From positions 3,284,048-3,348,047 of the forward strand of contig NZ_AP017560.1 in the NCBI RefSeq assembly GCF_003967015.1: 64,000 nucleotides of DNA, in the 5' to 3' direction. This document shows, in pieces, positions 51,040 to 61,171 of the stretch (its first letter is position 1; every line of letters begins with the position of its first letter). Source of the DNA: Pseudanabaena sp. ABRG5-3. Its GTDB lineage: Bacteria; Cyanobacteriota; Cyanobacteriia; Pseudanabaenales; Pseudanabaenaceae. The notes below the pieces were generated by a model. It did no database searches. It was not told the origin of the DNA and was given only the letters and a program-made list of their open reading frames with translations. Both the position numbers and the translations under genes were made by a program.

Positions 51040-51170
51040 TAGCAGGACTTGATGCAGCTAAAGCAATGAAAGCCATAAAGCCCAAGAGGTGAGTTGCGGC
51101 GCGAAGCGCCGCAACTCACCTCTTGGGCTTTGATTTGTCCTAGCTATCTCTTTCATGGCTATATTACCTA
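51040..51170. repeat. Family A element, about 130 bp
   Basis: Core 51077-51131: perfect 26-bp arms AAAGCCCAAGAGGTGAG.. around GAA. Flanks include AATGAAAGCCAT and ATGGCTATATTAC and the family text GATTTGTCCTAGCTAT. Confidence 0.82.
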
Positions 51171-51233
51171 TTACTATTACTAGTTTATCGAGAAGCTTGA
51201 CGATTTCAATGTGTTCCCAGACTCATTTGGGAA

Positions 51234-52898
51234 TTAGGACTCAGGGGCAGGTTTGCCGAAATTACCCACACCTAAATATAATTCGGCAACTTCAGGATCG
51301 TTTAACAAATCATTTCCCTTGCCTGTAAATTCATCTTTGCCCAAGTGCATCACATATCCGCGATCAGCGATCGCTAGAGCCTTACGTGCATTCTGCTCCA
51401 CCAAAATAATCGATGTCCCCGTTTGATTAATTTTTTGAATCAAATTAAAAATGTCCTGTACCAAAATGGGTGATAAAGCCGCCGAAGGTTCATCCAAAAT
51501 CAATAGCTTGGGTTCTAGCATCATCGCTCGCCCCATCGCCAACATTTGCCTTTCCCCACCTGAGAGCGTTCCTGCCCTTTGATTGCACCGCTTCGCTAAT
51601 ACTGGAAATGTTTCATAGATTTTGTCCTTGAGATCCTTGATATTGCCATCACGGGTATAAGCCCCCATATCCAAATTGTCAGAAATACTCAGCGATGGAA
51701 ACACATTGGCAATTTGAGGGACATAGCTAATCCCTAGACGCACGATTTGCTCTGGCTTCAGCCCAATTAAGTTGCGATCGCCAAATAATATTTCCCCAGA
51801 TCGCACTGGTACTAGCCCAAATATTGCCTTGGCGAAGGTGGATTTCCCTGCACCATTGGAGCCAATCACCGTTACCAGTTCGCCTTCATAGACCGATAGA
51901 TTTGCCCCTTGCAAAATATCTACGCCTTCCACATATCCCGCCACAACATTACGGGCTGCAAGGATCAGGTTTTGGGAAATTGGTCTTTCAAAATTTTTAG
52001 TAGCAATATTAGACTTAATGATATCGTGAATGGATAGCTCATTCGATTTCACAGATTTAAGAGGCTCCTGTGAACTCCTCAATTTTACTTTGCTATCATT
52101 AATCACATTAAGTGATTTTAGAGCGTCTAAAGATATTTTTGCATTGGGATATCGATCTCCAATTCTAGGTGCAGTCATCTTCTCTAACCACTCGATAAAC
52201 TGTGGATCAAGTCTTGAGACAAGATGCTTAAATACAATTCTGCCATCTTCATCTGTAAGCCTATTCATATCTCTTGATTTAGTATTTGTTAGTAAGCAAA
52301 TCAAAGTTGCTCCTAAACCGTAGAGATCAGTTGCTTCGGTAAGTTCTTTGTAATAAATTTGTTCTGGAGCCATGAATCCAAACGTACCAGATGCTACGCT
52401 GCTCATTGCACCCTCACCACTACCTATTCTTGCAAATCCGAAATCAATTAGATAAATATTAAAATGCTCATCCACCAAAATATTTTCTGGCTTGATATCG
52501 CGATGAAAAACTGGCGGAATAAGATTTTGTAGATATATCAAAATCTCTAGAATCTGAACTGCAATTTCTTTAACTTGATATGGCTCGAAACTACGAGGTA
52601 TTGATAGTGGCTTTGCTTCTTTGTATTCCTGCACAATACAAAAACCATCATCAGTTTCAAATGAATCTAAATAGGTTGGAATCCTTTCATGCTTTAGAGA
52701 CCTAAGAATATCCCGTTCTCGTTCAGTTTGTTTAAATCCAGACCAAGTAGTTTGACTTTTTGCAAACTGAAATTGCTTGATTACTACCAAAGCACCACTA
52801 TGGATGTTTTTTGCTAAATAAACAACCCTACCCCCTTGAAGATTGCTTCCTAACTCCTTGATCACTTGATATGACTGAAAATTGGGTAAATTGCTCAT
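51234..52898 (-). CDS. Ser/Thr protein kinase fused to LivF-type ABC ATPase
   Basis: A 554-residue two-domain fusion. Residues 1-265 are a complete Hanks-type kinase: K41 in VVIKQF, the alpha-C glutamate in TERERDI, HRDIKPEN (132-139), IDFGFA (151-156), and MAPEQ (176-180). After a linker (about 265-312) residues 313-554 form a LivF-like ABC ATPase: Walker A GSNGAGKS (347-354), Q-loop YVPQ, signature LSGGE (445-449), Walker B LLILDEP (465-471), H-loop region LVEQNARKAL. LivF normally is a separate protein of about 235 residues. With LivG (57632) and LivM (60218) nearby it probably energises a branched-chain amino acid or urea importer and may phosphorylate it. No stop or frameshift separates the halves. 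Confidence 0.9.
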   Translation of the reverse strand: MSNLPNFQSYQVIKELGSNLQGGRVVYLAKNIHSGALVVIKQFQFAKSQTTWSGFKQTERERDILRSLKHERIPTYLDSFETDDGFCIVQEYKEAKPLSIPRSFEPYQVKEIAVQILEILIYLQNLIPPVFHRDIKPENILVDEHFNIYLIDFGFARIGSGEGAMSSVASGTFGFMAPEQIYYKELTEATDLYGLGATLICLLTNTKSRDMNRLTDEDGRIVFKHLVSRLDPQFIEWLEKMTAPRIGDRYPNAKISLDALKSLNVINDSKVKLRSSQEPLKSVKSNELSIHDIIKSNIATKNFERPISQNLILAARNVVAGYVEGVDILQGANLSVYEGELVTVIGSNGAGKSTFAKAIFGLVPVRSGEILFGDRNLIGLKPEQIVRLGISYVPQIANVFPSLSISDNLDMGAYTRDGNIKDLKDKIYETFPVLAKRCNQRAGTLSGGERQMLAMGRAMMLEPKLLILDEPSAALSPILVQDIFNLIQKINQTGTSIILVEQNARKALAIADRGYVMHLGKDEFTGKGNDLLNDPEVAELYLGVGNFGKPAPES

Positions 52899-53040
52899 GG
52901 TTGCTCAAATAAATACTCAAGCTAGTGAATGTTTTAAGTTTAGTGTACCGTAGCTTTTTAGTAAGACTACGGTAGTATCTTGTATAAAATCAAATAAAAA
53001 TGTAGTATCTAAGAAATTTACAGTATCACTTAATTCATCC

Positions 53041-54399
53041 TCATATTGTTGAGATTGCTACTCGGAAACCGATGTCATTGTAGCGATCACCTTGCCAATG
53101 CCAATCACGACTTGCTGAGCGACATAATTTTGCCTCGTTACTCCATGAGCCGCCCTTCCGCACGCGCCGCCCCGAATTTCCCTCAAGCCAAGCTGAACCA
53201 TCCGCAGGCGCACCCTTAAAACTATCGTGCCAAGCATCCTCGCACCATTCCCATATACCGCCGTGCATTTCGTAGAGTCCCCAAGGATTAGGAACTTTCT
53301 GCCCAACGGGTTGCGATCGCTTATTAGAGTTATCGACAAACCATGCATAATCTGCGAGTTCCGTAGGGCTATCACCGAAATGGTAAGCCGTATTTGTGCC
53401 AGCACGACAGGCATATTCCCATTCTGCCTCACTGGGTAAACGGTAAGCATAGGCATGGAGCGATCGCGCAGTTAACCGACGACAAAAATCCTGTGCTTCG
53501 ATCCAAGAAATATTTTCCATCGGCGCTTGCAAACTTTCGCGAAAATTGGCAGGATTATTGCCCATAAGTACTAGCCATTGCTCCTGTGTGACTATAAATT
53601 TGGCGATATAAAAGGCTGGTATATTGACTTCCACTAGAGGAGATTCATTGTCCCTTCTACCAATTTCGTTTAGTGGCGAACCGAGGGTGAATTTCCCCGA
53701 TGGAATCCGTACCATTTCCATATAGATTCCATTCCCTAAATCGTCTCGAAATGCTTTATCACCTCTCTTAATTGGATCGCGGGGTATTTCTGGAAGTTTC
53801 GGAGATTCAGCTATGACGATTGGTTGAGGCTGAGGTTTGAGTTTTTCTAAAAAAAGAGCTATAGCAAACCCTGCGATCGCAGTACTTGTATGGGTCAACA
53901 ATTGACGACGATTGAATTTAATTGGTATTTTCTCTAAGGATTTCACCAATGATTGCGCGATCGCCACTGCCTTGATCGTTGAAATCTCTGAACGCTTTGG
54001 AGATTCCCCCTCAGTTTCAATGGTTTCACTCAAATTAGCATTATTCTCAATTTGACCAAATTCGTTGCGAAATTCTTCTAAATATGCGTAACCTTCCAAA
54101 TATTCACGCACTAAACAATAATAATTATCTTCATTAAAAAAAGACTGCACTCTCGGCGCAAGGGTATAGTTCTGTCCAATTTCATAAAGCCTAGTGGCGA
54201 TCGCCCCATGATCAAAGTCATTCTCGATATACTCTTGGGCAACGATTTGCCAGCAATAAATTACACATAGCGGCTTAGGTGTGGTGGGTATCTCTAAATT
54301 TTCAGCGAGATAAATTGATATAGCGATCGCCCCAATTTGCTCACTATCGATGCCTTGCTGAATGTGGTAACGATTGCTGAGAATGGTATCTAAATCCAT
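53041..54399 (-). CDS. Formylglycine-generating-enzyme-like protein with degenerate kinase N-lobe
   Basis: A 452-residue protein. Residues 1-105 align with the N-lobe of cyanobacterial kinases (LSNRYHIQQGI, IYLAENLE, ATRLYEIGQN, YYCLVREYLEGY) but the catalytic lobe is missing. At 161-186 lies NRRQLLTHTSTAIAGFAIAL, a Tat-like twin-arginine motif with a hydrophobic stretch. Residues about 213-452 are an FGE-sulfatase domain (YRLPSEAEWEYACRAG, LYEMHGGIWEWCEDAW, RVRKGGSW...CRSASRD). The first of the two copper-binding cysteines of true FGE appears to be Asn, the second is kept, so sulfatase activation is unlikely. Same strand and upstream of the kinase-LivF gene. Confidence 0.85.
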   Translation of the reverse strand: MDLDTILSNRYHIQQGIDSEQIGAIAISIYLAENLEIPTTPKPLCVIYCWQIVAQEYIENDFDHGAIATRLYEIGQNYTLAPRVQSFFNEDNYYCLVREYLEGYAYLEEFRNEFGQIENNANLSETIETEGESPKRSEISTIKAVAIAQSLVKSLEKIPIKFNRRQLLTHTSTAIAGFAIALFLEKLKPQPQPIVIAESPKLPEIPRDPIKRGDKAFRDDLGNGIYMEMVRIPSGKFTLGSPLNEIGRRDNESPLVEVNIPAFYIAKFIVTQEQWLVLMGNNPANFRESLQAPMENISWIEAQDFCRRLTARSLHAYAYRLPSEAEWEYACRAGTNTAYHFGDSPTELADYAWFVDNSNKRSQPVGQKVPNPWGLYEMHGGIWEWCEDAWHDSFKGAPADGSAWLEGNSGRRVRKGGSWSNEAKLCRSASRDWHWQGDRYNDIGFRVAISTI

Positions 54400-54446
54400 G
54401 ATTTAACATTGATCATTTTTCAGACTACTTGTTATTACTCAAGGTC

Positions 54447-54533
54447 TATAGCGCTTTTCAAGCAAGCGAGGTACATAGGGTTGTGTCCCCGCCTTCGGCG
54501 GGGACACAACCCTGTACTTTGATATACGCTATA
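54447..54533. repeat. Family D element, 87 bp
   Basis: Ends TATAGCG/CGCTATA; core 54478-54512 GGGTTGTGTCCCCGCC-TTC- and complement, perfect 16-bp arms. It separates two divergent genes. Confidence 0.85.
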
Positions 54534-54563
54534 TAACTATAATCAGTTAAAAATGGCTAAATA

Positions 54564-55418
54564 ATGCTTCCTCCTTTTATTGTTTTAGATCCGATCCTTG
54601 AAGAATGGCTGCGTGAAGATATTGGACGTGGCGATCGCAGCACTAGTGGCTTATTCCCAGATGGTAATGCGCCCATCGGCAAAGCGGTATGGATTGCCAA
54701 GGCTGATGGCGTAATTGCAGGCTTACCGATTGCGGCTAGAGTCTTTCAGTTATTAGATCGTTCCGTAAACTTTGTGGCGATCACACAGGATGGTAAGCCC
54801 GTAAAATCTGGCGAACTGATTGCTGAGATTACGGGTAGTCTTGCCACATTGTTAATGGGGGAAAGGGTTGCACTCAATCTGGTCATGCGTTTATCAGGAA
54901 TTGCCAGTACTACGGCAGAATATGTTAAGGCGATCGCTAGTTCTCAAACTCGTTTAGTCGATACGCGCAAAACGATTCCAGGAATGCGATTGTTAGAGAA
55001 ATATGCCACATTTATTGGTGGCGCGATCAATCATCGTTATGGTTTAGATGATGCAGTGATGCTCAAGGATAATCACATTGCGGCGGCGGGAGGCATTACG
55101 GAGGCAGTGCAGCGAGTGCGCGGGAATATTCCTTTTACGACATCGATTGAAGTGGAAACGGAGTCAATCGTCCAAGTAAAGGAAGCCATGCAGCTAAATC
55201 TCGATGTGATTATGCTAGACAATATGCCATTATCGATGATGCGCGAGGCGATCGCTCTCATTCGTCAACATAGCCAACACACCAAAATCGAAGCTTCAGG
55301 GAATATTACTCTGACTACTATCGCTCAAGTTGCAGAACTAGGTGTAGATTATATTTCCACTTCGGCAATGGTGACGCGATCGCCTTGGCTAGACATTAGT
55401 ATGCGGATCAAAACATAA
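54564..55418 (+). CDS. nadC: Nicotinate-nucleotide pyrophosphorylase (carboxylating)
   Basis: Converts quinolinate and PRPP to nicotinate mononucleotide in NAD synthesis. The 284 residues include EDIGRGDRST, LMGERVALNLVMRLSGIAS, DTRKTIPGMRLLEKYA, NHRYGLDDAVMLKDNHI and the phosphate-binding EASGNITL. Length and motifs are standard. It is followed 37 bp later by the Hsp70-like gene on the same strand. Confidence 0.96.
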   Translation: MLPPFIVLDPILEEWLREDIGRGDRSTSGLFPDGNAPIGKAVWIAKADGVIAGLPIAARVFQLLDRSVNFVAITQDGKPVKSGELIAEITGSLATLLMGERVALNLVMRLSGIASTTAEYVKAIASSQTRLVDTRKTIPGMRLLEKYATFIGGAINHRYGLDDAVMLKDNHIAAAGGITEAVQRVRGNIPFTTSIEVETESIVQVKEAMQLNLDVIMLDNMPLSMMREAIALIRQHSQHTKIEASGNITLTTIAQVAELGVDYISTSAMVTRSPWLDISMRIKT

Positions 55419-55454
55419 TAATTCGCATTTTGCTAAAGAGAAAGATCAATAATT

Positions 55455-57056
55455 ATGGAATATGCAATCGATTTTGGAACGAGTAATACTGTTGTTGCAA
55501 GAATCAATGAGAACGTAGAAATAGAAACTGTCAAATTAGCTGATTACAGTAGCCTCATCGCTGATAATCCACCGTTAATTCCTAGCTTTGTCTATGTACA
55601 GGATGCTGTCAAAGAGCAGGTGCTAATCGGTCAAGAAGTTAGCGATCGCGGCTTAGACAACAAAAACACCAAAGGCGAACCGCGATTTTTCAAAGCTTTT
55701 AAACGAGCGATCGGTTCTAATGTGTCAATGTTTGTGCCAGAAATTGATGGGCGCGAAGTAGAATTTGAACTAGTCGGAGAATGGTTTTTAAAGAGAATCA
55801 TCGATCGCCTACCTGATGTGGACTCGCTGATTTTCACGGTTCCTGTCGATAGCTTTGAGTCCTATCGGAATTGGCTAGGTGGAGTCTGCGAGAAACTAAC
55901 CATCAATCAAGTGCGAATCATCGACGAACCAACCGCCGCCGCCCTTGGCTATGGCATTAGTGGAGGTGGTGAAACTCTGTTAGTCGTGGACTTTGGTGGC
56001 GGAACCTTAGATTTATCTTTAGTGAAATTGTCCTTTGCTCCAGCTCAGGCAGAATCCAGTCAGCCGAAATCCCCCCTTGGCTTTTTATTGAAATGGGGCG
56101 ATCGCACTGTTAAGAATTCCTCCTCGGCAAATAGTCAAAACGCACAAACCGCTAAAGTTCTTGCGAAAACAGGTCAAAATCTTGGCGGGATTGATATCGA
56201 TAATTGGATTATTGATTATTTCCATAAAGAATTAGGAGTACCTAAAAATTCTCTCGTAACTCGCTTAGCGGAACGGATAAAGATCTCTCTTTCTAGTGCC
56301 GAATCTGTTACAGAAGTTTATTTTAATGATGAAACATTTGAATCTTATGAGTTAAGTTTGACGCGATCGCAGTTAAATCAAATTCTGGAACAGCAGAAAT
56401 TTTTTGTTAATCTCGATAGCGCCCTTGATCGCATTCGGCAACAAGCAACTCGCCAAAATCTTGACCTAGATCAAATTGATGCGATTCTATTAGTGGGTGG
56501 AACTTCCCAAATCCCTGCTGTGAAAGAATGGGCATTAAAACATTTCCCTAGCGAGAAAGTAAAAGCAGATAAGCCCTTTGAAGCGATCGCCCATGGTGCA
56601 ATTTCCCAAGGCTGGGAACTCAAAGACTTTCTCTATCACAGCTATGGGATTCGCTACTGGGATAAAAGATATAAAAAGCATAACTGGCACACCATCGTTA
56701 AATCTGGTGCAACCTATCCCTTAGAAAAACCAGTAGAACTAACTCTTGGGGCATCGGTTCCCAATCAACCAAGTATTGAGCTAGTCATCGGTGAACTAGG
56801 CGAGACTAATGTGGAAGTTTATTTTGAAGATCAACGCCTTGTCACCCGTGTACTAGAGGGCAAGCAAGTTGCAGTCCAAATTCTCAATGAGAATAGCAAA
56901 GTGATTGCCAATCTCGATCCTCTGGGGCAAACAGGTAGCGATCGCATTAAGGTGTTCTTCCAAGTTGATGAAAAACGGACTTTACGAATTACGGTTCTAG
57001 ATTTATTAACAAAGCAAAATTTGCTAAATAATATGCCTGTTGCACAACTAATGTAA
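55455..57056 (+). CDS. Hsp70-family (DnaK-like) protein, divergent
   Basis: A 533-residue protein shorter than DnaK (about 640). The actin-like ATPase core is intact: IDFGTSNTVVARI (phosphate 1), IIDEPTAAALGYG, LLVVDFGGGTLDLSL (phosphate 2), LLVGGTSQIPAVKEW (adenosine). Residues 400-533 are a reduced substrate-like domain ending without the helical lid and the EEVD-type tail. Similar truncated Hsp70 proteins are frequent in cyanobacteria; clients unknown. Confidence 0.9.
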   Translation: MEYAIDFGTSNTVVARINENVEIETVKLADYSSLIADNPPLIPSFVYVQDAVKEQVLIGQEVSDRGLDNKNTKGEPRFFKAFKRAIGSNVSMFVPEIDGREVEFELVGEWFLKRIIDRLPDVDSLIFTVPVDSFESYRNWLGGVCEKLTINQVRIIDEPTAAALGYGISGGGETLLVVDFGGGTLDLSLVKLSFAPAQAESSQPKSPLGFLLKWGDRTVKNSSSANSQNAQTAKVLAKTGQNLGGIDIDNWIIDYFHKELGVPKNSLVTRLAERIKISLSSAESVTEVYFNDETFESYELSLTRSQLNQILEQQKFFVNLDSALDRIRQQATRQNLDLDQIDAILLVGGTSQIPAVKEWALKHFPSEKVKADKPFEAIAHGAISQGWELKDFLYHSYGIRYWDKRYKKHNWHTIVKSGATYPLEKPVELTLGASVPNQPSIELVIGELGETNVEVYFEDQRLVTRVLEGKQVAVQILNENSKVIANLDPLGQTGSDRIKVFFQVDEKRTLRITVLDLLTKQNLLNNMPVAQLM

Positions 57057-57631: not shown

Positions 57632-58411
57632 TTAACCTTCATCTCCAAGGTATGCTTCAATCACCGCTTGATCATTCTTCACAATTTCAGGCTGACCGAT
57701 CGCAATTAGCTGTCCAAAATCTAACACGGCAATGCGATCGCAAAGTCCCATCACCAAAGGTACATGATGCTCGATTAAGAGAATTGTCAAGGCTAAGCGA
57801 TCGCGCAAGCTCCGAATGAAGTCACTTAATTGTCCTTTTTCATTGGGGTTCATCCCTGCGGCAGGTTCATCTAGTAATAATAATTTGGGCTGCAAAGCAA
57901 GGGCTCGGCCAATCTCAAGACGACGCTGATCGCCATAGGAGAAGTTTTTGGCTTTAACATCAGTGCGATCGCTTAAGCCCACTAGTTCTAATAGTTCATA
58001 GGCGCGATCATAGGTTTGTTTTTCTTCTTTATGGGTGGGTGGTAAACCTAAAATTCCATTCCAAATACCTGTGGTGGTACTTAAGTGTCTAGCGATCGCC
58101 ACATTCTCTAATGCTGAAAGCTCACCAAATAAGCGGATATTTTGAAATGTTCGGGCAATGCCACATTTAGCAATTTGATGAGGACGACGATTAGTAATTT
58201 CTGTCCCATCGTAGAGAACTTTGCCACTACTAGGTGCAATTAAACCTGTAATCGTATTAAATAGAGTCGTTTTGCCTGCCCCATTGGGACCAATCACACC
58301 AAAGATCTCATTTTCCTGCACTTCAAAGGACACCTCATTTACTGCCACTAATCCACCAAAGCGACGGGTTACTTGTTGAATGGCTAGGGTTGTTTTACTG
58401 CTCTTGTCCAT
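57632..58411 (-). CDS. livG: LivG-type ABC transporter ATPase (branched-chain amino acid family)
   Basis: A 259-residue ATPase. Walker A GPNGAGKTT, Q-loop TFQN, signature FSYGDQRRLEIGRAL, Walker B LLLLDEPAAGMNP and H-loop LLIEHHV are typical of LivG, the second ATPase of the LivHMFG importer (also UrtD in urea transporters). Its partners are the LivF domain of the kinase fusion at 51234-52898 and LivM at 60218. LivH and the periplasmic binding protein are not in the window, so substrate is unresolved. Confidence 0.9.
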   Translation of the reverse strand: MDKSSKTTLAIQQVTRRFGGLVAVNEVSFEVQENEIFGVIGPNGAGKTTLFNTITGLIAPSSGKVLYDGTEITNRRPHQIAKCGIARTFQNIRLFGELSALENVAIARHLSTTTGIWNGILGLPPTHKEEKQTYDRAYELLELVGLSDRTDVKAKNFSYGDQRRLEIGRALALQPKLLLLDEPAAGMNPNEKGQLSDFIRSLRDRLALTILLIEHHVPLVMGLCDRIAVLDFGQLIAIGQPEIVKNDQAVIEAYLGDEG

Positions 58412-60217: not shown

Positions 60218-61171
60218 TTAAGCCCCTTGTTTACGTTTGATGAATATCTTTTGAGTTGTGCGCTTACACCAATCTAAAAATTCGGGGGTAATAATTCCTT
60301 TAGGATAAAAAATCGTACCAACCACGATCAGCACTCCAAAAATAATTAAACGCCCATCCTTCAGGAATTGACCTAACCATGCGGGAACCCCAGTACTCGC
60401 AATCCCTCGCAAAGCTTCAGGCAAAGCCGTGAGGAGAATGCCACCAACTACGGGTCCCCAAAAAGTACGTGAGCCACCAATCAAGACAAAGGATAAGAAG
60501 ATAATACTGGCATCAAAAGTTCCCTGACGAGAATTCCATGTATTCAGGAAATGCGCACTCACGGCTCCAACCATACCCGCCAAAATTGCTGCTAGGGTAA
60601 AAGCTAACACTTTGTAATAAGTAGGATTGATCCCCATCGAATCGGCAGCTAGTTCATCCTCTCGAATCGCGATTAATGCTCGTCCGACCCGAATTTTTTC
60701 GAGGCGATACATAAATGCCATACTCAAGCCCAAAAGTGGCAAAGCTAACCAAAGGTATTCTAAGGCTGATTGAAAGGGTTGAGGAATGCCAAAAATCCCG
60801 ATCGCACCACCAGTGATCTCCAAATTCAGAGCAACCACTCGCAAAATTTCTACAAAGGCAATGGTAGCGATCGCAAGATAAATTCCGCGTAGCCGTAATA
60901 CAGGAATCCCTAAAATGACAGCAAATAGCCCTGATATTACGCCCGCCACCAGCATTTCGAGCAATACCCACCAGATTGGCAAAGTTCCTGTAGTCGCGGG
61001 TAAAATCTTAGTAGAGGCGATCGCCGCAATATATCCACCCAAGGCATAAAACCCAGGTGTCGCCAGTGACAACTGACCTGCCATCAATGGTAAATAGACG
61101 GAAATCCCTAGAATAGCCCCAAAAATTGCCGATACAATTAAAAAGCCATAGGTATTAAAAAATTCAGCCAT
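60218..61171 (-). CDS. livM: LivM-type ABC transporter permease (branched-chain amino acid family)
   Basis: A 317-residue inner-membrane permease with about eight helices. LivM signatures are GFYALGGYIAAIAS, LRLRGIYLAIATIAFVEILR, LIAIREDELAADSMGI and VLIGGSRTFWGPVVGG. It should pair with LivH (not in the window) and the ATPases LivG (57632) and the kinase-LivF fusion (51234). Its last residues QGA and stop are encoded by a family H half-palindrome. Confidence 0.92.
   Translation of the reverse strand: MAEFFNTYGFLIVSAIFGAILGISVYLPLMAGQLSLATPGFYALGGYIAAIASTKILPATTGTLPIWWVLLEMLVAGVISGLFAVILGIPVLRLRGIYLAIATIAFVEILRVVALNLEITGGAIGIFGIPQPFQSALEYLWLALPLLGLSMAFMYRLEKIRVGRALIAIREDELAADSMGINPTYYKVLAFTLAAILAGMVGAVSAHFLNTWNSRQGTFDASIIFLSFVLIGGSRTFWGPVVGGILLTALPEALRGIASTGVPAWLGQFLKDGRLIIFGVLIVVGTIFYPKGIITPEFLDWCKRTTQKIFIKRKQGA

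What the first reader, a model, noticed from the sequence alone, without database searches (positions are those of the whole stretch)
51234..52898. Ser/Thr kinase fused in one frame to the LivF ATPase of an ABC importer
Seen: one uninterrupted 554-codon frame with all Hanks-kinase landmarks (K41, HRD, DFG, APE) followed by a full-length LivF ATPase (Walker A/B, LSGGE). Known: LivF is normally a free subunit and cyanobacterial kinases usually end in TPR, WD40, GUN4 or FGE domains; I know of no described kinase-LivF fusion. Inference: transport energisation may be controlled by, or coupled to, phosphorylation, perhaps of LivG, LivM or the ATPase itself, giving a signalling importer.
Basis: partly seen in the sequence, partly recalled or inferred. 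Interest (0 to 1): 0.8.

Follow-up and report, generated by a model that had tools for sequence, protein, structure and literature searches.

The report
Kinase fused to importer motor protein
In one cyanobacterium, apparently a Pseudanabaena, DNA coding for a protein kinase sits directly in front of the gene for the ATP-burning subunit of an importer and the two read as one gene, a fusion seen in none of the relatives compared and whose function has not been tested.

Summary
Minus-strand frame 51234-52898 encodes 554 aa: a Hanks-type kinase with its catalytic residues, a linker of about 43 residues, and a complete LivF-type ABC ATPase. It is a gene fusion seen only in this genome in what I searched. 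All 25 congeneric genomes searched carry the same ATPase as a separate gene. Five relatives compared in detail lack a 1,061-bp AT-rich segment (51982-53042); where it lies, they have 77-127 bp that include the start codon. Colinear flanks and the absence of a second copy of either part make an assembly artefact unlikely; reads were not available. The ATPase part is as constrained as neighbouring genes (dN/dS about 0.04), so it probably still works. Which importer it serves is unsettled: a separate paralogue in the genome is the better match to LivF. Kinase relatives mostly carry hydrophobic segments behind the kinase; here the ATPase stands in their place. This is a new domain architecture from known parts, in one genome.

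The parts
51234..52898 (-). Fused kinase-ATPase open frame, 554 aa
   Evidence: Pfam
52113..52898 (-). Hanks-type Ser/Thr kinase part (residues 1-262), catalytic residues present
   Evidence: AlphaFold pLDDT mostly 70-97 to residue 266, lower at about 41-60 and 154-170
51984..52112 (-). Linker (about residues 263-305), no detected similarity to the C-terminal region of kinase relatives
   Evidence: 581 of 1000 shuffles score at least as high as the real stretch (residues 263-311)
51234..51983 (-). LivF-type ABC ATPase part (about residues 306-554); the first codons of the relatives' gene are replaced or unrecognisable
51982..53042 (-). Segment absent from five relatives (77-127 bp there); GC 34.7% against 42.8% for the window
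52050..52052 (-). Possible internal GTG start (codon 283) that would give a free 272-aa ATPase; AGGAG at 52065-52069
53041..54399 (-). FGE-sulfatase-domain gene just upstream, also upstream of the ATPase gene in many relatives
57632..58411 (-). LivG-type ATPase, possible partner subunit
   Evidence: 297.1 bits, below the LivG equivalog cut-off of 362
60218..61171 (-). LivM-type permease, possible partner subunit
   Evidence: ORF; BPD_transp_2 match

Best explanation
A lineage-specific, probably recent gene fusion. About 1 kb of AT-rich DNA carrying the catalytic N-terminal part of a cyanobacterial kinase lies between the FGE gene and the ATPase gene, in place of the ATPase's start codon and first, unconserved codons, and joins the two in frame (shown by comparison). 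The product is most likely one polypeptide: an active kinase tethered by a linker of about 43 residues to a LivF-type ATPase that still pairs with a LivG-type partner and drives an importer (inferred). In most relatives of the kinase hydrophobic segments follow the kinase domain; here an importer subunit takes that place and could keep the kinase at the membrane (inferred). Whether kinase and transport act on each other is left open: this reading is compatible with either the 'signalling importer' or the 'tolerated accident' rival, so the odds given do not add to one.
For: Open frame and both domains. Flanks of the insert match G002 at 94.5% and 94.7%; G021, G023, G025 and G014 also lack it. 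Separate gene in 25 of 25 congeners. dN/dS of the ATPase part 0.042 to G002 and 0.032 to G021 (0.061 G023, 0.057 G025, 0.026 G014), against 0.026 (livG), 0.046 (livM), 0.055 (hydrolase), 0.059 (nadC), 0.062 (purE) to G002. The fusion keeps 176 of 177 columns invariant in 15 congeneric ATPases; the one it lacks is the start Met. K41, E61, H132, G154, P178 and E179 are invariant in 67 of 67 kinase relatives and kept here. One full copy of the insert in the genome, one orthologous ATPase gene, and the displaced 5' sequence not found. 65 of 67 kinase relatives have at least one hydrophobic segment behind the kinase, the fusion none.
Against: Only one genome has it, so nothing shows that the junction is under selection. 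dN/dS averages over time before and after the fusion. Nonsynonymous changes in the ATPase part between G000 and G002 (6) exceed those between G002 and G021 (1); too few to judge. A separate paralogue matches LivF better, so the fused ATPase may serve a minor or different importer. The linker has no recognised origin. An internal start could separate the functions. Neither AlphaFold job modelled the ATPase part well, so the arrangement of the domains is untested.
Confidence: 0.55

Rival explanations
1. Signalling importer: the kinase domain controls transport (phosphorylating the ATPase, LivG or LivM), or its activity is set by the ATPase cycle.
For: Physical tethering. In Mycobacterium tuberculosis the operon-linked kinase PknF phosphorylates the ABC transporter Rv1747 in vitro and modulates it (PMC3908365, passages). 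Kinase catalytic residues are intact.
Against: One genome only and no phosphosite known. No other fetched locus with the ATPase gene holds the kinase. 25 of 25 congeners have the ATPase without it.
Confidence: 0.2
2. One gene, two products: an internal start at GTG codon 283 (AGGAG 12 nt upstream) makes a free 272-aa ATPase close to native size, so the fusion is partly or largely bypassed.
For: In-frame GTG with a 5-nt Shine-Dalgarno-like core in the linker; such sites occur 7 times in 6182 codons of 14 window genes, about 0.05 expected in the linker.
Against: The spacing is near the edge of the range searched (4-13 nt). Over the whole fused gene there are 2 such sites against about 0.6 expected. 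A consensus match is no proof.
Confidence: 0.2
3. Tolerated accident: the kinase fragment works on its own or not at all, the ATPase works as before, and the link has no biological meaning.
For: Compositionally foreign kinase part (GC3 0.256 against 0.334-0.462 in 14 window genes); seen in one genome; the linker resembles nothing tested.
Against: No visible decay: a 554-codon open frame with the kinase catalytic residues kept.
Confidence: 0.4
4. Assembly or sequencing artefact at the junction.
For: Reads were not available; only this assembly shows it.
Against: Flanks colinear with relatives; no other copy of the insert or of the orthologous gene from which a misjoin could arise; displaced native sequence not found; 4.8-Mb contig in an assembly scored 99.81% complete.
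Confidence: 0.03

Closest known systems
LivF/UrtE-type ATPases of hydrophobic amino-acid importers (Nat systems N-I and N-III of Anabaena, TCDB 3.A.1.4)
   Same: Complete ABC ATPase of this group; separate orthologues at 60% identity or more in many cyanobacteria; outside the genus no LivG or LivM found beside it in 8 of 8 genomes, a scattered gene like natE of N-I (PMC4500139, passages and section 3.1)
   Different: Here it is the C-terminal half of a kinase fusion without its own start codon; below the curated LivF and UrtE cut-offs, and the genome's separate paralogue L010 fits LivF better
Cyanobacterial Hanks-type kinases with additional C-terminal domains
   Same: N-terminal kinase with an extra C-terminal module
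   Different: None of the 14 additional domain types in the survey of 21 species is an ABC ATPase (PMC2176072, abstract and section 'Structure and function')
Kinase subfamily with the glycine loop GxNxxGGR (relatives L055, L099, L100, L057)
   Same: Same kinase domain, 47-62% identical in 24 aligned relatives; groups with L055, L099 and L100
   Different: Relatives are 327-711 aa, median 589, and 65 of 67 have hydrophobic segments behind the kinase; here a linker and the ATPase stand there
PknF-Rv1747 of Mycobacterium tuberculosis
   Same: Ser/Thr kinase dedicated to an ABC transporter (PMC3908365, passages)
   Different: Two proteins from one operon, a presumed exporter with FHA domains, not a fusion to an importer ATPase

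Membership tests
Hanks-type Ser/Thr kinase | Pkinase profile above cut-off | tested here: met
   125 bits against cut-off 31.7
Hanks-type Ser/Thr kinase | Catalytic Lys, alpha-C Glu, HRD, DFG, APE | tested here: met
   K41, E61, HRD 132, DFG 152, APE 177
Hanks-type Ser/Thr kinase | Kinase activity | not testable with these tools
   needs an assay
ABC ATPase | ABC_tran profile, Walker A, signature, Walker B | tested here: met
   101.2 bits against 25; motifs at 346, 445, 465
LivF equivalog as curated by NCBIfam (NF008626) | Score above the curated cut-off | tested here: not met
   193.9 bits against 441; the separate orthologue of G021 199.2, the paralogue L010 273.6, also below. 'LivF-type' is therefore by group, not by this equivalog
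UrtE (TIGR03410) | Score above the curated cut-off | tested here: not met
   196.9 bits against 285.8; the genome's real UrtE, L012, scores 325.3
N-I importer subunit NatE | Orthology to Anabaena NatE; gene apart from its partners | tested here: inconclusive
   No LivG or LivM (over 40% identity, E<=1e-15) in the 12-17 kb fetched around the orthologue in 8 of 8 genomes outside the genus, but paralogue L010 fits LivF better; Anabaena NatE itself was not compared
GxNxxGGR kinase subfamily | Glycine-loop motif | tested here: met
   N19 and G23 in 67 of 67, R24 in 66, G17 in 65, G22 in 64 relatives; all present here
GxNxxGGR kinase subfamily | C-terminal region of the relatives | tested here: not met
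   linker scores no better than shuffles against a profile of 63 of 67 relatives' tails; no hydrophobic segment

The most novel reading that the evidence does not exclude
A membrane kinase has exchanged its own C-terminal region for the motor subunit of an importer, so that kinase output follows the transporter's ATP cycle: a nutrient-sensing importer in one polypeptide.
Probability: 0.15. Interest if true: 0.7.

Novelty: new variant of a known kind. Interest (0 to 1): 0.4.

Why it matters
It is a clean natural experiment: the empty site, the donor kinase subfamily and the unfused orthologue are all known, so one can ask directly whether an importer ATPase tolerates, or uses, a kinase on its N-terminus. 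If coupled, it would be a direct physical link between nutrient uptake and Ser/Thr phosphorylation in a bacterium.

Tried and rejected
First alignment of fusion, kinases and ATPases together (A1; 40 rows) split the kinase rows over both halves and was dropped. Idea that the linker is a remnant of the kinase relatives' C-terminal region: not supported, 581 of 1000 shuffles score as high (63 of 67 tails, the short ones left out). Idea that the native first codons survive in diverged form: undecided; 19 of 42 nt upstream of the conserved part match G002 (31 of 5000 shuffles as good, one of five lengths tried), so the inner edge of the insert may lie up to about 40 nt further out. Promoter/terminator scan upstream of the kinase: 1 promoter-like site against 0.8 expected, no terminator. 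Viral contigs: no relative. Plasmids: no place covering 80% of the fusion among the 5000 best records, a limit that was reached. Structure: A2 models the kinase only; A3 is too shallow, mean pLDDT 48.9; no fold search was run. The 450-codon frame at the orthologue of G017 is a 419-aa ORF overlapping the FGE gene, no kinase. Frames of 362 (G303), 328 (G185), 321 (G084) and 304 (G159) were not inspected. In one search the livG comparisons with G021, G023 and G025 hit a 33%-identical paralogue and were left out. In one search, 14 of the 25 congeneric loci were read on the right strand; one search covered all 25. A search centred on another phylum did not run, so fusions outside cyanobacteria were looked for only in the plasmid and viral collections and, through short peptide patterns, in genome contigs.

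Full report
What is there. The minus strand holds one uninterrupted frame, 52898 down to 51234, of 554 codons; the plus-strand frame translated over the same stretch is closed. Pfam finds a protein kinase (residues 11-208, 125 bits) and an ABC transporter ATPase (329-472, 101.2 bits). NCBIfam places the second half nearest to UrtE and LivF, below the curated cut-offs of both (196.9 against 285.8; 193.9 against 441), so 'LivF-type' is the fair name. The closest solved structure by sequence is chain 1ji0_A, titled only 'ABC transporter'.

Both halves look functional. In 67 aligned kinase relatives K41, E61, H132, G154, P178 and E179 are invariant and R133, D134, N139, D152 and F153 nearly so (65-66 of 67); the fusion keeps them all. 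The relatives share an unusual glycine loop, G-x-N-x-x-G-G-R (N19 and G23 in 67 of 67), which the fusion also has. The 67 were chosen by identity over 45% and coverage of the whole kinase domain, which left out four congeneric loci (L063, L064 and L066, truncated; L067, 37% identical); near-identical entries are included (66 distinct of 68 rows with the fusion). The ATPase keeps Walker A, signature and Walker B and 176 of 177 columns invariant in 15 congeneric ATPases, the exception being the start Met.

It is a fusion and not an old gene. All 25 other genomes of the genus that were searched carry the same ATPase at 83-96% identity; in each the ORF has no kinase match. Of the 20 named loci with the orthologue in the GTDB collection 16 are titled Pseudanabaena, so the window is very probably from that genus. 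Among 122 loci (several places held twice; ORFs running off a 3' end not read; 6 loci gave no ORF match) no ORF matches both halves. Of 338 cyanobacterial genomes 185 have an orthologue-level match; 150 matches were listed, and only this genome has a frame over 500 codons, the next being 450.

How it arose. Compared with G002 the window is colinear: 51170-51981 and 53043-55423 match at 94.5% and 94.7%, but the window has 1,061 bp between them where G002 has 91. G021 (91 bp), G023 (77), G025 (77) and G014 (127) also lack the insert; in G021, G023 and G025 colinearity on the upstream side reaches only through the FGE gene, at 80-82%. In relatives the FGE gene is followed by an ATPase gene beginning MNASQSADLSDRQISQNLI or similar. 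Here recognisable similarity begins at about residue 304-307, so the start and first codons are gone or unrecognisable; a faint match over 42 nt leaves the exact edge open. The insert is 34.7% GC against 42.8% for the window; the kinase part has GC3 0.256, the ATPase part 0.447, fourteen window genes 0.334-0.462, and eight other kinase segments of this genome (two of them overlapping; 34 Pkinase matches exist) 0.277-0.452. In the tree the kinase groups with one from another genus of the family (L055), a Chamaesiphon (L099) and an Okeania one (L100), beside, not within, the kinases of its own genus (its branch is long, so its place is unsure). Acquisition from elsewhere followed by in-frame joining fits; an old paralogue lost in the other congeners would fit the tree too. 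The linker has no detectable relation to the C-terminal region of kinase relatives.

Is it an artefact? Unlikely. The flanks are in the order of the relatives. The genome holds one full copy of the insert and one orthologous ATPase gene; the displaced native 5' sequence was not found, the best match being 18 nt at E=0.04. The contig is 4.8 Mb in an assembly scored 99.81% complete. Reads could not be inspected.

Does the ATPase still work? Probably. dN/dS of this part is 0.042 to G002, 0.032 to G021, 0.061 to G023, 0.057 to G025 and 0.026 to G014; neighbouring genes compared with G002 give livG 0.026, livM 0.046, hydrolase 0.055, nadC 0.059, purE 0.062, hsp70 0.091, FGE 0.134. This cannot separate the time before the fusion from the time after. 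Against G002 there are 6 nonsynonymous changes, between G002 and G021 only 1, too few to call a relaxation.

Which importer? Unsettled. LivG-type (57632-58411) and LivM-type (60218-61171) genes lie a few kilobases away, and eight permease-family matches are in the genome. Outside the genus no LivG or LivM was found around the orthologue in 8 of 8 genomes (12-17 kb each); within the genus G002 and G014 have them nearby, G021 not in the 20 kb fetched. In Anabaena the N-I system is scattered (natE alone at all2912) while N-III is a cluster, and N-I does about 98% of AIB uptake (PMC4500139; passages and section 3.1). Position thus hints at NatE of N-I. Against it, the genome's separate paralogue L010 (47% identical) scores 273.6 bits with the LivF model, the fused one 193.9 and its separate orthologue in G021 199.2, so L010 may be the true NatE. 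L012 is UrtE (325.3 bits, over the cut-off).

Mechanism. Shown: one open frame, catalytic residues kept in both halves, start codon lost, conserved ATPase. Inferred: one polypeptide, an active kinase, a working ATPase, membrane location through the importer. In 65 of 67 kinase relatives at least one hydrophobic segment (Kyte-Doolittle mean of 1.6 or more over 19 residues) follows the kinase, in 46 at least two; the fusion has none. No dedicated transmembrane predictor was run, and Pfam gives only weak hits there. Unknown: whether either half affects the other. A competing possibility is an internal start, GTG at codon 283 with AGGAG 12 nt upstream; such sites occur 7 times in 6182 control codons, about 0.05 expected in the linker, but the fused gene as a whole has 2 where about 0.6 are expected.

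Comparison with the literature. A survey of 286 kinases in 21 cyanobacteria lists 14 types of additional domains, none an ABC ATPase (PMC2176072, abstract and section 'Structure and function'). The nearest functional parallel seen is PknF and the ABC transporter Rv1747 of M. tuberculosis, two proteins from one operon (PMC3908365, passages). Searches of the open-licence library listed no paper whose title or abstract start reports a kinase-LivF or kinase-ABC fusion; subscription papers are mostly not held. Of PMC6213207 I saw passages only.

Verdict. The signalling-importer idea is testable and not supported by conservation.

Noticed in passing
53041-54399: The FGE-domain gene upstream starts with about 110 residues that resemble a kinase N-lobe by eye, though Pfam reports only FGE; it directly precedes the ATPase gene in many congeners.
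   Followed up: partly
52946-52974: Inverted repeat TACCGTAG...CTACGGTA in the AT-rich stretch upstream of the kinase start, inside the insert; no terminator-like site was reported there.
   Followed up: no
L061 (G016): A kinase relative in the same genus with a different-looking C-terminal region (weak SLATT_6 hit), a hint that this kinase subfamily changes its C-terminal module.
   Followed up: no
L101, L102, L103, L112 (Okeania and relatives): Two to four ORFs of the same kinase subfamily stand in tandem.
   Followed up: no
55455-57056: Short DnaK-like gene (533 aa) next to nadC, conserved in G002 and G014.
   Followed up: no
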